In this document: positions 5,576-12,457 of the stretch, piece by piece
Layout of the letters: each line of letters begins with the position of its first letter
How positions within the stretch are numbered: the stretch's first letter is position 1
NCBI RefSeq assembly: GCF_946479715.1
Contig: NZ_CAMLHF010000087.1
Span: 1-21,834, forward strand
Reading direction: 5' to 3'
DNA from: an uncultured Pedobacter sp.
Lineage (GTDB): Bacteria; Bacteroidota; Bacteroidia; Sphingobacteriales; Sphingobacteriaceae
Length of the DNA: 21,834 bases
Translations under genes and position numbers: made by a program
Notes under the pieces: generated by a model
Databases searched by the model: none
The model's input: only the letters and a program-made list of their open reading frames with translations
Told to the model about the DNA's origin: nothing

Positions 5576-8350
5576 TCAGAATCTGAAAAAGGTATCTCTG
5601 CCACCAACCTTACCACCAAAATTCTGAATATTGTAAGTCAAAGTTAGTAGGCCATGACGGCCTAAATTATTGGTGCTGATATCCCGGATATAATTCTCGC
5701 TGATGCTAATAGATCTCCTTGTGTTGGTATTTAAAATATCATTCACCGCAAACTTCAACTGAGCTTTGTCGTTCTTCAGGAACAAGAACGTAAGGCCGGC
5801 ATTCCAAATCTGAATGTTATTGTTAAATCCGGCTACGGTCTGGGTATTGTACTGTAACTTATAGCTTGTTTCCCAAACCATTTTTTTTGGAAAACGAACT
5901 ACCATTTCTGTTTCACTTGTGTGTACCAGAAAATCCAGATCACTATAAAAAGGATCATCATAAGAACTCTTATTAATACCCAGGTTGTAGGTCTCAGCAA
6001 ACTCAAACTTATCATTTAAATTAAGTCGCGCGTTGAGTCTTGGGGTTAAAGCTATATTATTTGCAAAACTTTTTACTGAATTAACCAATACAACATCGTG
6101 GTTATAGGTTAGCCAAAAACCACCACCAAACGTAAACTGGTTCTTTCCGTTTTTAATCTCCTTATTTACGTATCCCCCACCATTAAACTGCCATATACCG
6201 TCCTCATTAACAGGAGTATTTACCTGAACACCATTGTCGCGTATTACCCTCGACATCACAATTGCATCTTTCTGAAATGTCAGAAAGCCATTGTAGAAGT
6301 AATTGAGGGAGCGTTTGGTGTCATATTTAGATACTCTTGTGCCAATTTGGTGAGCTCTTGCGGGTCTGAGGTTAGGGTTGCCTTCCTGTATGAACAAAGG
6401 ATTAGAGTTGTTGGCCACAGGCTGAATGTATTTCACATCTGGTTCTCTGAAAGAAGGTGAGTAATCCAAACTAAAGGTTTTGTACCTCACCGTCAGTGAA
6501 GGGGCAATGAATCGGTAATGCTGTTCAAATGAGGCTGCACTGCTGAAGTTGTTTTGCAGGTCGATGGTATTAAGCACAAAACCTGGTTGGATGTTAAAGT
6601 CCTTAGTAATCTTCCATTTCAAACTTGCGCGTGAATTGCTTTTATATCCACTTTGAGTAACTGCTTCTGATAGGGTAGGAACCGCTATATCGTAAGCCTG
6701 GTTGAGTGGGTTTTTATAAAAAGTAAATAGGGCATTTTCATTGTCCAGATAATTGCCACCAACAGCAAAACTTAGTGCTAATTCCTTGCTAATCGGTTCA
6801 GCATAGTTGGCATTTAAGTTCAGTCCAAAATTACGGATGTTATTATCTCTTAGTTGATCTGTTACACTATTTGAAGGCGGATTATAGAAATCATTCTTCG
6901 CCACATTAAAATTGTCATTAAGATTATCTCTTTTACTGGTGCCTATGGCAGCATAGAAAGTTCTTCCCGGTTTCTTAAAGTCTTTCCAAAAGTTACCGTT
7001 AAAATAATACTCTGTATTTGCTCCCCGCAATCTATTGTCATTTATGCCATTATTCAGTAAAATGCTATTAGCATCCCTGGTCTCCGTTTGTTGAAAACCA
7101 TTGTTGCGAACAGTACGAAGAACAACAGAAGGCTCCAGTATGAGCTTGGTCAGCGTATCAATTTGCCATTCCGCCTTAGCACCAATGTTGTGGTTATAAT
7201 TCTTATTGCGCTGATTGGAACTGGTTATGGTGTGTAATTTTTCAGTACCCAGATTTTGATTAGCATCAATGATCTGTTCAAGGGAGTTATCGATCGACCC
7301 AAAGAAATACTTACCGTTCACTTTTATCCCACTTTTGGTAAGTGTGTTAAAATTTGCACCAGCCCCGATTGAACGCTGTACTCCTGCAGAAGAGCCTCCA
7401 AATGAAATGTCATTTACAAAAGCAGCCCCATCACTGTTGGTATACATAGAATTAATGCCGCTTCTGGAAAATCCACCAATACGGGAAATCTCCCCAACAT
7501 TAAAACCCGGTTTGTTCACATTATTCCCATAAGTCAGCAGACTTAATTGTGTAGTGTCTCTGAAAAAATTTAAGATGCCACCTGTTTCATACAACTCTTT
7601 TAGGCCGCCACCTGCATAAAGTTTACCAAAGGCACCCTGTTTAATAGCTTTCTTTAGCTTTAAATTGATTACCTGTGGTACATTTCCGGCTAATAGATCC
7701 GGGTCCTGTCTTTTGGCTTCCTGATCGTCAGTCACCTGAATTTTGTCTATGATATTTGCAGGTAAATTCTTGGTCGCAATCTGTTGGTCCCCTCCAAAAA
7801 ACTCTTTTCCGTCAACCAATATCTTACTGACATCTTTACCGTTTACCTGTATACTGCCATTTGCTGCAACAGTTACGCCGGGAAGTTTTTTCAGTAAATC
7901 ATCTACCACAGCAGTAGGAAGTGTTTTAAACGATCCGGCATTAAACTCAATAGTATCCTTTCGTACAATGATAGGGGGGCGTTCTGAATAGATAACCACC
8001 TCATTTAAAGCATTTGTTTTTACAGACATTCGTAGATTCCCCAGATCTATATTGCTGCCTGCCGTGGTAAAGGTAACCTCTTTACGTAAAACCAAATATT
8101 GCCAGGCATTTACCACAAGGCGATACTTTGTTCCAGCTTCCAGGTTTGAAATTTTGAACACACCTTTGTCGTCAGACAGTTTGTAGGTCGTTAAAACAGT
8201 GTCCTGCCCCTTAAAAACAGAAATTGTAGCATAATTAATGGTCATTTTTTGATTGGCGCTGTCAATCAGCACGCCGGTAAGGCTGCTTTTTTGGGCAAAT
8301 AGGGTCACCGACGATAGTGCAAAAGCTATCGTTAATAAGTTTCTTTTCAT
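5576..8350 (-). CDS. Outer-membrane beta-barrel protein, TonB-receptor-like with carboxypeptidase-regulatory-like domain
   Basis: A 924-residue exported protein. Residues 1-20 are a Sec signal peptide ending in LFAQ. Residues 21-110 form a carboxypeptidase-regulatory-like beta-sandwich (LTGVLIDSANQK, DDKGVFKISNLEAGTKYRLVV). About 112-215 is a plug-like domain beginning NALNEVVIYSERPP and including VDDLLKKLPGVTV, VNGKDVSKILVDGKEFFGGD and LPANIIDKIQVTDDQE. The rest is a large Tyr/Asn-rich beta-barrel of the outer-membrane beta-barrel type, ending in an aromatic FFRF as barrel proteins do. It is not a SusC with a SusD partner. The ligand is unknown. It lies 114 bp downstream of the M56 protease on the same strand, so it may belong to the BlaI-M56 unit or have its own promoter; no good -7 match was found in the gap. 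Confidence 0.92.
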   Translation of the reverse strand: MKRNLLTIAFALSSVTLFAQKSSLTGVLIDSANQKMTINYATISVFKGQDTVLTTYKLSDDKGVFKISNLEAGTKYRLVVNAWQYLVLRKEVTFTTAGSNIDLGNLRMSVKTNALNEVVIYSERPPIIVRKDTIEFNAGSFKTLPTAVVDDLLKKLPGVTVAANGSIQVNGKDVSKILVDGKEFFGGDQQIATKNLPANIIDKIQVTDDQEAKRQDPDLLAGNVPQVINLKLKKAIKQGAFGKLYAGGGLKELYETGGILNFFRDTTQLSLLTYGNNVNKPGFNVGEISRIGGFSRSGINSMYTNSDGAAFVNDISFGGSSAGVQRSIGAGANFNTLTKSGIKVNGKYFFGSIDNSLEQIIDANQNLGTEKLHTITSSNQRNKNYNHNIGAKAEWQIDTLTKLILEPSVVLRTVRNNGFQQTETRDANSILLNNGINDNRLRGANTEYYFNGNFWKDFKKPGRTFYAAIGTSKRDNLNDNFNVAKNDFYNPPSNSVTDQLRDNNIRNFGLNLNANYAEPISKELALSFAVGGNYLDNENALFTFYKNPLNQAYDIAVPTLSEAVTQSGYKSNSRASLKWKITKDFNIQPGFVLNTIDLQNNFSSAASFEQHYRFIAPSLTVRYKTFSLDYSPSFREPDVKYIQPVANNSNPLFIQEGNPNLRPARAHQIGTRVSKYDTKRSLNYFYNGFLTFQKDAIVMSRVIRDNGVQVNTPVNEDGIWQFNGGGYVNKEIKNGKNQFTFGGGFWLTYNHDVVLVNSVKSFANNIALTPRLNARLNLNDKFEFAETYNLGINKSSYDDPFYSDLDFLVHTSETEMVVRFPKKMVWETSYKLQYNTQTVAGFNNNIQIWNAGLTFLFLKNDKAQLKFAVNDILNTNTRRSISISENYIRDISTNNLGRHGLLTLTYNIQNFGGKVGGRDTFFRF

Positions 8351-8464
8351 AAAATTTCTAAATTTTAGGCAATAGGTTTCCTCTCACTTTTTAGTGATTT
8401 TTAAATTTTGTAGTAAATAATTGTTATTTGTTAAGTCTCAGGTATCTTACTTTTTGTATAAGTT

Positions 8465-9988
8465 TTATCTCGGTGAATCTCCAGTTGGACCAGGTTGGCC
8501 TATCGGTCCAGGCTCGCCAATGGGACCTGTTGGACCAGGACTTCCTTTAGGCCCGGAAGATTCTATTTTTACACGTAACTTAGACGATCGTGCCGCAACC
8601 TCCTCAGCTCTAATCCTGACCTCCTCGGCTCTTGTTTTAGCTGCATCTATTCTTATTTTGGCTTGGTCCAATCTTATCTTCGCTTCATCAGCTCTCGCCT
8701 TTGCTTCATCAGATCTAGCTCTGGTTTCGTCAGCTCTTATTCTTGCTTCTTCAGATCTTCTCTTATTCACCTCAGACCTCTTTCTGTCTTCTTCAAATCT
8801 CGCTTTCGCTTCATCAGATTTTATCTTAATCACTTCAGATTGTACAACGTTTGCTGTTGTCGGCTTCGAAGAATTACTTCTTTTAAGTTTAACCCTTTTC
8901 TTTGCCGGCCTGGGGTTCTGTTTTTTCCGAAGGTTTAATGTGTCGGTCTGTCTTGGTTCAATTATATGTTTCTCCGCAGGTGTAATCATGCCATCAGGGG
9001 CCTTACTTACACTTTTTGAGCCAACTGACGAAAAAGCTGCGGTCAGCACAACAGCTGTTACCAAACAAACAGTCAACAAGCTTTTTTCAATGCCGCTCAA
9101 AGTATGGTTATCATTTGAAACCATCCGTCTCACACGTCCAACTAAACTATTTCTGTTGGCAGCAAGCATCATTGCAAATCGCTGATTTACCTGAAACTGC
9201 TGACAAGAAAGCAAAGCATTAATATAAACTGTTTTATTCTGTTTAGTGGCTATCACCATGTCATCACAGCAGTTTTCCCTTTCTGCTTTAATCAGCGTTG
9301 ATATCCATAAAACTGCCGGATTAAAGAAAAATATAAGCTCCAGAAAGTTTTGCAATACATTAACCAGGTAATCCCTACGGCGAATATGACTTAACTCGTG
9401 AAGTAAAATTACCTCCACCTCGGCAACCGATAAATTAGCCAGTAAGCCAACCGGAAGTAAAATCAGCGGTTTTAAATGACCAAGAACCATTGGTATTTTT
9501 GCAATCCCAGATTCAACTACAGTGATTTTATTTTTAATCTCCAATATCTCACACAAATAACTGACCTTATCTTCCCAGTATTTCTCTATTGGTATCAACT
9601 GTTCGCGCTTCAGACGATACAGGTTATAAAATCCTACACCAAGCCTGGTAAATTTGATACAAATCATTAAAAACCAAACAAGCACGATGATTTCTGCTCT
9701 TGAATTCAAATATTGATAGCCGTAAAAAAGAATATTGTTCTCACTTGGGTCAATTGTCTGATTATATACGTCGTTAATCCCATCTGGAGCAGTCAGATGG
9801 AAAAGTAAGATCAAGCCTGTGGCCAAAGTAAACATCAAAAGATATCCTGTCAGTAATCTATACCTTAACCTGGAACTCGACTTCCGTGTAAAAATGATAG
9901 TTAAACCAGTAACCACTGAAAGTACCAGACCTAACCACAAAGATTGTAGTAAAGTATCGCAAATTGCTTGTATCAGTTGATGTTTCAT
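8465..9988 (-). CDS. M56-family (BlaR1-like) membrane metalloprotease with heptad-repeat stalk and collagen-like tail
   Basis: A 507-residue protein. Membrane segments are visible near residues 12-33, 44-65, 97-115, 212-230 and 302-320. The M56 zinc motif HELSH is at 197-201 (His197, Glu198, His201), with the ERENCCDD block at 236-243 that supplies the further Glu in BlaR1/MecR1 proteases. Such proteases are activated by an envelope signal and lead to cleavage of the partner BlaI repressor, encoded 19 bp upstream. The penicillin-binding sensor domain of BlaR1 is absent. After the last helix comes a Lys/Arg-rich linker (351-370), then twelve unbroken heptads at 391-474 of the type SDEAKAR or ADEAKIR, then nine Gly-X-Y triplets at 479-505. 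BlaR1 topology would put this tail in the periplasm. ATG at 9988 is well supported. Confidence 0.93.
   Translation of the reverse strand: MKHQLIQAICDTLLQSLWLGLVLSVVTGLTIIFTRKSSSRLRYRLLTGYLLMFTLATGLILLFHLTAPDGINDVYNQTIDPSENNILFYGYQYLNSRAEIIVLVWFLMICIKFTRLGVGFYNLYRLKREQLIPIEKYWEDKVSYLCEILEIKNKITVVESGIAKIPMVLGHLKPLILLPVGLLANLSVAEVEVILLHELSHIRRRDYLVNVLQNFLELIFFFNPAVLWISTLIKAERENCCDDMVIATKQNKTVYINALLSCQQFQVNQRFAMMLAANRNSLVGRVRRMVSNDNHTLSGIEKSLLTVCLVTAVVLTAAFSSVGSKSVSKAPDGMITPAEKHIIEPRQTDTLNLRKKQNPRPAKKRVKLKRSNSSKPTTANVVQSEVIKIKSDEAKARFEEDRKRSEVNKRRSEEARIRADETRARSDEAKARADEAKIRLDQAKIRIDAAKTRAEEVRIRAEEVAARSSKLRVKIESSGPKGSPGPTGPIGEPGPIGQPGPTGDSPR
8474..8554 (-). repeat. Coding repeat: nine Gly-X-Y (collagen-like) triplets
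   Basis: The extreme C-terminus of the M56 protein, residues 479-505, reads GPK GSP GPT GPI GEP GPI GQP GPT GDS, rich in Pro at X or Y. The DNA forms imperfect 9-bp units. Nine triplets is short for a stable triple helix on its own, but a preceding coiled coil could trimerise it. Confidence 0.9.
8567..8818 (-). repeat. Coding repeat: twelve 21-bp units encoding charged heptads
   Basis: Residues 391-474 of the M56 protein consist of twelve consecutive heptads without insertion. Arg is at position 7 in eleven of them (Lys in the last), acidic residues dominate positions 2 and 3, and small or hydrophobic residues dominate positions 1 and 4. On the + strand the same block appears as diverged 21-bp units resembling cttcatcagctct. 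Salt-bridge spacing (Glu3-Arg7; Lys5 with the next residue 2) suits either a coiled coil or a single stable helix. Confidence 0.9.
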
Positions 9989-10007: not shown

Positions 10008-10406
10008 TTATTCCTCATTAATTTTGTTTAACAGATTTCTAATCTCATCTACATCCTCTTTTGTGGTGTCCCCGTTTCCTAGTAGTTGTACTACCAGCTT
10101 ACTCGCAGAACCATTATACATCGCGTCTACAAATTTCTTTAAGAGGTGACGCTTTGTTTTCTCTTCGTTTTCTGTAACATGATAAATATGTTTTACCGCG
10201 CTTTCATCTCTTTTCAGGATTTTCTTTTCGGCCATGATTTGCATCAGCTTCAAAGTAGAAGTATAGTTGATTTCCCTGTGTTCATTTAATTTGTCATTTA
10301 CAAATCTAACTGACGACGGACCATATTCCCATAATACCTGGAGTATTTCAAGTTCTGATTTAGTAGGTTCAATTTTGCTATTTTCAGTTTCGGATGGTGC
10401 TTTCAT
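10008..10406 (-). CDS. BlaI/MecI/CopY-family transcriptional repressor
   Basis: A 132-residue protein with the BlaI winged helix at about residues 13-80: PTKSELEILQVLWEYGPSS, then VNDKLNEHREINYTSTLKLM and a wing in MAEKKILKRDESAVKHIYHV. A C-terminal dimerisation helix carries LLKKFVDAMYNGSASKLVVQL, the region in which BlaI proteins are cleaved by their M56 partner. It is 19 bp upstream of the M56 gene, the standard repressor-protease pair. The 12-bp palindrome at 10426-10437, just upstream of its ATG, is a candidate autoregulatory operator. Nothing nearby encodes a beta-lactamase, so the regulon is probably local envelope genes; this is inference. Confidence 0.93.
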   Translation of the reverse strand: MKAPSETENSKIEPTKSELEILQVLWEYGPSSVRFVNDKLNEHREINYTSTLKLMQIMAEKKILKRDESAVKHIYHVTENEEKTKRHLLKKFVDAMYNGSASKLVVQLLGNGDTTKEDVDEIRNLLNKINEE

Positions 10407-10425: not shown

Positions 10426-10437
10426 TTTCGTACGAAA
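10426..10437. promoter_or_regulatory. Perfect palindrome upstream of the BlaI gene (candidate operator)
   Basis: TTTCGTACGAAA is a complete 12-bp palindrome 20-31 bp upstream of the BlaI start, where a repressor would block transcription of the BlaI-M56 unit. It differs from the TACA-TGTA operators known for staphylococcal BlaI, so assignment to this repressor is inference. Confidence 0.4.
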
Positions 10438-12394: not shown

Positions 12395-12412
12395 GTTTAA
12401 TAATATTTAAAT

Positions 12413-12457
12413 TATACTTTTTGGTCTATTTTATAATATACTTTTTAGTCTATTTTA
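12413..12457. promoter_or_regulatory. Two tandem TetR operator candidates upstream of the SDR
   Basis: Two 21-bp copies, TATACTTTTTGGTCTATTTTA at 12413-12433 and the same with one A for G at 12437-12457, repeat with a 24-bp period. The 16-bp cores read TAGACCAAAAAGTATA and TAGACTAAAAAGTATA on the minus strand and match TATACTAAAAGGTATA at 13084-13099 upstream of tetR. They lie 19-63 bp upstream of the SDR ATG, where repressor binding would overlap the promoter. Confidence 0.7.

What the first reader, a model, noticed from the sequence alone, without database searches (positions are those of the whole stretch)
8474..8818. M56 protease with a 12-heptad charged stalk capped by a collagen-like tail
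The BlaR1-like protease lacks a recognisable ligand domain. After its last membrane helix it carries 84 residues in perfect 7-residue register (391-474), then nine Gly-X-Y triplets (479-505). By BlaR1 topology this tail is periplasmic. With standard rises (0.15 nm per helical residue, about 0.29 nm per collagen residue) it would reach roughly 12.6 plus 8 nm if fully extended, comparable to crossing the periplasm. This suggests a mechanical or proximity sensor rather than a ligand pocket. The repeats are seen; topology and role are inference.
Basis: partly seen in the sequence, partly recalled or inferred. Interest (0 to 1): 0.75.

Follow-up and report, generated by a model that had tools for sequence, protein, structure and literature searches.

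The report
Helix-stalked membrane protease of outer-membrane operon
A Pedobacter-like membrane protease related to antibiotic sensors carries a long, probably rigid charged helix that could reach far into the space between its two membranes and sits in a row with a repressor gene and an outer-membrane barrel gene, so it probably senses something at the cell envelope rather than penicillin; its collagen-like tip is real but short and variable.

Summary
The repeats are real: 12 seven-residue units (391-474) and nine Gly-X-Y triplets (479-505) in a 507-aa M56 protease. But the stalk does not look like a coiled coil: 46 opposite-charge against 2 like-charge i+3/i+4 pairs, no hydrophobic seam, one predicted helix, so a charged single alpha-helix of about 13-14 nm. 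Periodic tails with other motifs occur in 76 of 201 relatives examined. Most relatives (68 of 80 genome loci) end in a conserved cap domain. The window's clade lacks it and ends in 5-9 Gly-X-Y triplets, with Gly losses in one ortholog; a triple helix is unlikely. The gene lies in a recurring blaI-M56-outer-membrane-protein order. A palindrome, TCGTACGA, sits in the blaI promoter in 58 of 77 cases; of 62 extended sites in 59 of 144 related genomes, 61 lie upstream of an M56 match. Best reading: an envelope-sensing relative of BlaR1 that uses the helix as spacer, cleaves BlaI and induces its own operon. In capless loci elsewhere the cap is often a separate gene nearby (5 of 12 against 1 of 68). 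New variant of a known kind.

The parts
8465..9988 (-). M56 (BlaR1-like) membrane metallopeptidase, 507 aa
9386..9400 (-). HELSH zinc-binding motif, residues 197-201; ERENCCDD follows at residue 236
   Evidence: H197, E198 and H201 invariant in the 56-row alignment
9023..9085 (-). last membrane helix, residues about 302-322, aligned to the last membrane helix of BlaR1
8849..9022 (-). basic linker, residues 323-380 (15 K/R, 4 D/E), predicted disordered
8567..8848 (-). charged single-helix stalk, residues 381-474; the twelve 7-residue units are 391-474 (8567-8818)
8474..8554 (-). nine Gly-X-Y triplets, residues 479-505, predicted disordered as a monomer
10008..10406 (-). BlaI-family repressor, 132 aa (Penicillinase_R, 79.5 bits, cut-off 22.6)
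5576..8350 (-). outer-membrane beta-barrel protein, 924 aa (OMP_b-brl_3, 75.2 bits, cut-off 27; Plug 18.4 bits, below its cut-off of 23.9)
10426..10437 (.). palindrome TTTCGTACGAAA, proposed BlaI operator, between a TTG and a TACATTAG promoter-like element

Best explanation
This is the sensor-protease of a self-regulating envelope switch. Shown here: blaI, the M56 gene and an outer-membrane barrel gene lie in a row on one strand, with a conserved palindrome in the blaI promoter; the protease motif is intact; the tail is a long helix predicted with high confidence over 391-470. Inferred: the protease sits in the inner membrane with its tail in the periplasm; the tail's charged single alpha-helix (84-94 residues, about 13-14 nm) is a stiff, monomeric spacer that holds a C-terminal element near the peptidoglycan or outer membrane; the state of the envelope there (most likely of the barrel protein made from the same operon) is passed to the last membrane helix, the protease cuts BlaI, and the operon is derepressed. 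In this clade the usual cap domain at the tip is missing, most simply lost, and a short Pro/Gly-rich tail takes its place.
For: Stalk: 46 opposite against 2 like i+3/i+4 charge pairs (shuffles about 24 and 24; the net is reached in 0 of 5000), moment below the shuffle mean; helix 381-474, block pLDDT 60 for 381-390 and 85-96 for 391-470; dN/dS 0.14-0.31, length changes mostly in sevens. Gene order: a BlaI-like gene in 76 of 80 loci; barrel proteins of one linked set directly downstream in 45 of 79 loci that have a downstream ORF. Operator: TCGTACGA upstream of blaI in 58 of 77 (shuffle mean 0.17); exact TTTCGTACGAAA at 2 places in each of two whole genomes, all four at blaI-M56 loci (the reversed control gave 1 place in one genome, 0 in the other); 61 of 62 extended sites upstream of an M56 match (reversed control 2 hits in 144 genomes). 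Cap loss: the four capless rows group with six capped ones, SH-aLRT 99, quick tree. BlaR1 is the nearest solved relative (E 2e-9).
Against: No contact between tail and barrel protein, peptidoglycan or cap is shown. The barrel gene is not directly downstream in 34 of the 79 loci (in L027 and L057 it lies a little further on), so it cannot be the universal partner. The palindrome is missing in 19 of 77, among them the four loci with split stalk proteins, and the extended pattern in 85 of 144 genomes. Only 24 of 55 distinct charged stalks show salt-bridge enrichment at p<0.01; 8 look amphipathic. The fold match to BlaR1 is not significant by E-value (6.5e-3), and the model as a whole is moderate (mean pLDDT 68.4, pTM 0.51). 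BlaI binding to the palindrome is inferred.
Confidence: 0.5

Rival explanations
1. One reading: the heptads form a coiled-coil rod and the Gly-X-Y tail a collagen triple helix, together a mechanical or proximity gauge across the periplasm.
For: Perfect 7-residue register and nine uninterrupted triplets; tail gaps between orthologs are multiples of three and the tail region has dN/dS 0-0.37 on 15-33 codons; Gly unchanged at 7 of 7 places against the O48 ortholog while X/Y changed at 6 of 14; Collagen E-value 6.8e-5 on the tail alone. Single-helix domains are described as constant-force springs (PMC4183817, passages), so a mechanical role fits the helix even without a coiled coil.
Against: No hydrophobic seam; Collagen scores 23.0 bits on the tail alone, below the cut-off of 27.2; V48 has lost 2 of 9 Gly while changing 1 of 18 X/Y; LMG 23400 has only 5 triplets. 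BlaR1 is a dimer (PMC9834060, passages), not a trimer.
Confidence: 0.12
2. The tail is a passive remnant: the sensor cap was lost, the spacer persists, and any sensing is done by the loop between membrane helices 2 and 3 or by the membrane itself.
For: No cap was found elsewhere: in the two genomes searched the cap profile hits only open frames of other M56 genes (3 hits). No cap remnant lies behind the stop codon. A search with the tail finds only three close relatives. The corresponding loop is part of the signalling proposed for BlaR1 (PMC9834060, passages).
Against: Stalk dN/dS 0.14-0.31 is only somewhat above that of the core (0.12-0.15) and below that of the linker in 3 of 5 pairs; a free tail should erode.
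Confidence: 0.25
3. The stalk is an alanine-rich parallel coiled coil that pairs the two chains of an M56 dimer, or pairs with a separate stalk protein.
For: Positions 1 and 4 are mostly Ala/Ser/Val with mean hydropathy 1.19 and 1.28; weak Alanine_zipper score (12.7 bits, E 0.16); in other loci a capless M56 and a neighbouring exported-looking protein carry similar heptads (one M56 stalk matches such neighbours at 39-74% identity in four genomes).
Against: Position 6 is as hydrophobic (1.69) and lies on the other face; the moment is below the shuffle mean; Alanine_zipper is far below its cut-off of 23.1.
Confidence: 0.13

Closest known systems
BlaR1/MecR1 beta-lactam sensor-transducers (M56) with BlaI/MecI
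   Same: M56 metalloprotease core, HExxH, last membrane helix, BlaI-family repressor gene beside it
   Different: no penicillin-binding sensor domain recognised; tail is a charged helix; the downstream gene encodes an outer-membrane barrel protein; NCBIfam blaR1_generic scores 81.7 against a cut-off of 400
Single alpha-helix (SAH, ER/K) domains such as that of myosin-10
   Same: dense i+3/i+4 opposite-charge pairs without a hydrophobic seam (definition in PMC4183817, passages)
   Different: 7-residue periodicity, periplasmic location inferred, Arg-rich with net positive charge; no biophysics done
TolA/TonB periplasm-spanning transducers
   Same: in most relatives: inner-membrane anchor, long helical periplasmic spacer, C-terminal domain; some stalk-plus-cap proteins are auto-named colicin import membrane protein
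   Different: attached to a protease, not to a proton-driven motor (recalled); the window protein lacks any C-terminal domain; no TolA or TonB Pfam match
Prokaryotic collagen-like proteins (for example Scl)
   Same: uninterrupted Gly-X-Y stretch, Pro at X, Thr at some Y
   Different: nine triplets here against 50 and 79 in two Scl proteins (PMC8968730, passages); variable between orthologs; below the Pfam cut-off

Membership tests
Peptidase family M56 | PF05569 match above gathering score | tested here: met
   112.3 bits, cut-off 31
Peptidase family M56 | HExxH zinc motif | tested here: met
   HELSH 197-201
BlaR1/MecR1 beta-lactam sensor | C-terminal penicillin-binding sensor domain | tested here: not met
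   no such domain in Pfam or NCBIfam; BlaR1 and MecR1 models match only residues up to 317 and fall far below their cut-offs
BlaR1/MecR1 beta-lactam sensor | BlaI/MecI-family repressor next to it | tested here: met
   10008-10406, Penicillinase_R 79.5 bits
BlaR1/MecR1 beta-lactam sensor | N-out, C-out topology | not testable with these tools
   by homology only
Single alpha-helix (SAH) domain | excess of opposite-charge i+3/i+4 pairs | tested here: met
   46 opposite, 2 like; net reached in 0 of 5000 shuffles
Single alpha-helix (SAH) domain | no hydrophobic seam | tested here: met
   moment 0.06, shuffle mean 0.12
Single alpha-helix (SAH) domain | monomeric, non-cooperatively melting helix | not testable with these tools
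   needs circular dichroism and ultracentrifugation
Coiled coil | amphipathic a/d stripe | tested here: not met
   (hydrophobic moment; no coiled-coil predictor was available)
Collagen-like (PF01391) | Pfam gathering score | tested here: not met
   23.0 bits on the tail alone, 19.0 with the stalk, cut-off 27.2; not listed for the whole protein at E<=0.001
Collagen-like (PF01391) | conserved Gly at every third residue | tested here: inconclusive
   Gly changed 2 of 9 (V48) and 0 of 7 (O48); X/Y 1 of 18 and 6 of 14
Bacteroidota M56 proteins with C-terminal cap (family defined here) | cap domain at the C-terminus | tested here: not met
   no match at E<=1 in window, V48, LMG 23400 and O48; matched in 68 of 80 genome loci
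TolA/TonB | motor-binding membrane helix and TonB/TolA C-terminal domain | not tested
   no direct comparison made; no such Pfam match

The most novel reading that the evidence does not exclude
A family of trans-envelope proteolytic switches in Bacteroidota: M56 proteases whose periplasmic single-helix stalks carry an exchangeable tip (fused cap, cap on a separate exported stalk protein with similar heptads, or here a collagen-like tail) that reads an outer-membrane receptor made from the same operon and controls mainly its own operon through a dedicated operator.
Probability: 0.35. Interest if true: 0.75.

Novelty: new variant of a known kind. Interest (0 to 1): 0.5.

Why it matters
Many of these proteins are named BlaR1 or beta-lactamase-regulating by their sources, which suggests beta-lactam resistance, yet the gene order and operator point to control of an outer-membrane barrel protein. 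If the model holds, it shows how a cytoplasm-facing protease can receive a signal from the far side of the periplasm, and gives a natural series of stalk lengths and tips to test it. It also warns that a perfect heptad array next to Gly-X-Y triplets need not be a coiled coil with a collagen rod.

Tried and rejected
Collagen rod: set aside as the main reading. Coiled coil by hydrophobic seam: rejected for the window. BlaI/MecI-type half-sites (TACA..TGTA, recalled) in the blaI promoter: 1 of 77, shuffle mean 0.44; the conserved palindrome is another one. Cap as a frameshifted remnant behind the stop: no. Cap elsewhere in the V48 and LMG 23400 genomes: three hits, all in open frames of the lengths of other M56 genes there. 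Identity of the cap: no Pfam match for an isolated cap at E<=5; Foldseek gave nothing at E<=0.001; the VIA-align rows covered mostly the first module, so the cap's fold is untested, not new. Prior reports: ten answered full-text searches (open-licence PubMed Central papers only; others were for helix, collagen and BlaR1 background; most lists were cut at 5-20 papers) showed no title or abstract on this gene order, operator, cap or a collagen-tailed M56. I read passages only of PMC12578637, PMC7593790, PMC12204202, PMC4183817, PMC10470040, PMC8968730, PMC7254926 and PMC9834060; the rest I saw only as listings. The relaxed pattern TTGNNTCGTACGA adds two sites in each genome: in LMG 23400 one upstream of a third blaI-like gene and one inside a gene beside a transporter ATPase (by eye); the two in V48 were not examined. 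Its reversed control gave 2 and 4 hits, so these extra sites may be chance. The one extended site of 62 without an M56 match (G142) may lie by a match not listed, as the list was cut. Rows dropped: 76 heptad tails, 74 distinct, 55 left after leaving out those with under 35% D/E/K/R/Q or with Pro. The 201 proteins are partly redundant (P0003 and L001 are one protein, P0002 and L002 nearly so) and some are fragments; 13 of them seeded the cap model, and cap matches were counted at E<=1.

Full report
What is there. The window holds, on the minus strand, blaI (10008-10406), an M56 metallopeptidase (8465-9988) and an outer-membrane barrel protein (5576-8350), with gaps of 19 and 114 bases. The 7-residue periodicity is far beyond chance (lag-7 identity 0.44 against 0.12; 0 of 20,000 shuffles).

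What the stalk is. A heptad array suggests a coiled coil, but the test fails: the hydrophobic moment of residues 381-474 is below the shuffle mean (reached by 4073 of 5000 shuffles at the heptad angle), while opposite charges pair at i+3 and i+4 46 times against 2 like pairs, where shuffles give about 24 of each. That is the signature of a charged single alpha-helix (as described in PMC4183817, passages). AlphaFold2 gives one helix, 381-474, with block pLDDT 60 for 381-390 and 85-96 for 391-470, between a linker (323-380) and a Gly-X-Y tail that are both under 50 almost throughout; the model as a whole is moderate (mean pLDDT 68.4, pTM 0.51). At 0.15 nm per residue the helix is 12.6 nm (84 residues) to 14.1 nm (94 residues).

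How far it is conserved. A search with residues 380-507 alone finds three proteins, two named Pedobacter and one unnamed, of 969 candidates scored. V48 (L081), LMG 23400 (L002) and O48 (L001) orthologs were compared with the window by codon in five pairs. The stalk evolves under constraint (dN/dS 0.14-0.31; core 0.12-0.15; linker 0.19-0.58, the stalk being lower than the linker in 3 of 5 pairs), and its length changes by seven-residue steps except near its ends in O48. The tail region 475-507 gives 0-0.37 on 15-33 codons, so relaxed selection is not shown. The Gly-X-Y tail has 9 triplets in the window, the same length with two Gly replaced in V48, 5 in LMG 23400 and 7 in O48; a near relative of LMG 23400, P0002, has one Gly replaced. 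Gly changed at 2 of 9 (V48) and 0 of 7 (O48) places, X/Y at 1 of 18 and 6 of 14: no clear extra constraint on Gly, with few data.

The wider family. Of 201 relatives examined (the window, 120 best database hits, 80 genome loci; partly redundant), 76 have significant 7-residue periodicity in the tail, with motifs that differ by clade. Of 55 distinct charged, Pro-free ones, 24 show salt-bridge enrichment and 8 amphipathicity at p<0.01, 3 of them both. A conserved C-terminal cap of about 60 residues, for which an isolated copy has no Pfam match, is found at E<=1 in 177 of the 201 and 68 of the 80 loci. The window and its orthologs lack it. On a quick tree of the protease core (113 rows) they group with six capped proteins (SH-aLRT 99), so the cap was most simply lost; cap state needs 7 changes, at least 6 by supported branches. 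Gly-X-Y runs of four or more triplets in the tail occur outside this clade only in P0010, which also keeps its cap, and P0077.

A split form. In 5 of 12 capless loci, against 1 of 68 capped ones, a nearby gene carries the cap (next, or next but one in L055; Fisher p 1.8e-4). In four of the five (L055, L062, L073, L075) it is a protein with a signal-peptide-like start (by eye), a first module, heptads much like those of the M56 stalk, and the cap; the fifth (L057) is a weak match (E 2.3e-5). AlphaFold2 models one as a dumbbell: a beta module, a 160-residue helix (82-241, block pLDDT 86-98) and an alpha/beta cap. Such proteins form a sizeable family (234 hits among 8000 candidates scored). This supports the periplasm as the place where stalk and cap work, and suggests that the tip is exchangeable.

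The operon and its operator. BlaI-like genes lie in 76 of 80 loci, and barrel proteins of one linked set directly follow the M56 gene in 45 of the 79 loci with a downstream ORF. The palindrome TCGTACGA lies upstream of blaI in 58 of 77 cases (window included; shuffle mean 0.17), flanked by TTG and TAcCTTTG in promoter-like spacing (that this is the Bacteroidota promoter type is recalled). It is missing in 19, among them the four loci with split stalk proteins. TTTCGTACGAAA occurs once in the window (10426-10437) and at two places in each of the V48 and LMG 23400 genomes, all at blaI-M56 loci (the reversed control gave 1 place in V48 and 0 in LMG 23400). The extended pattern TTGTWTCGTACGAAA has 62 sites in 59 of 144 genomes of the group (reversed control: 2 hits), and 61 of the 62 lie within 1 kb upstream of an M56 match on the same strand. 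So the switch appears to control mainly its own operon, and the two operons of these genomes share one operator.

How it most likely works. Shown: gene order, operator sequence, intact protease motif, helical charged stalk (by prediction and charge pattern), absence of the cap. Inferred: inner-membrane protease with a periplasmic tail (BlaR1 is N-out/C-out, PMC9834060, passages); the helix as a stiff spacer; a signal from the outer side, most simply the state of the barrel protein; BlaI cleavage and derepression as in BlaR1. Whether the Gly-X-Y tail does anything is open.

Verdict. The sequence observation is right, the coiled-coil-plus-collagen reading is not the best one, and the more interesting facts lie beside it: the operon, the operator and the exchangeable tip. 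It works like BlaR1 with BlaI but is not a BlaR1 by the sensor-domain test. New variant of a known kind.

Noticed in passing
window 10426-10437: Palindrome TTTCGTACGAAA in the blaI promoter; shared by the two blaI-M56 operons of the V48 and LMG 23400 genomes, so the paralogous repressors may cross-regulate.
   Followed up: yes
L055, L062, L073, L075, L057: Capless M56 genes with a separate nearby gene that carries the cap, in four of them on a protein with similar heptads and a signal-peptide-like start.
   Followed up: partly
P0145, P0160 and others: Stalk-plus-cap proteins auto-named colicin import membrane protein, probably from the helical repeats alone.
   Followed up: no
P0010 residues 626-676: M56 relative with a longer collagen-like run (Pfam Collagen 26.4 bits, cut-off 27.2) placed before an intact cap.
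   Followed up: no
L036 5216-5914 and 8110-8802: Two further cap-bearing genes flank a capped M56 gene.
   Followed up: no
window 5576-8350: The barrel protein is of a 924-aa type; the paralogous loci L017, L023 and L054 (V48 and two P. panaciterrae strains) encode 817-818-aa ones.
   Followed up: partly
window 8421-9185 (+): A 254-aa open frame antisense to the stalk, without any Pfam match; probably a by-product of the repeat.
   Followed up: no
window 12406-12457: A 24-bp unit in 2.2 tandem copies between two ORFs.
   Followed up: no
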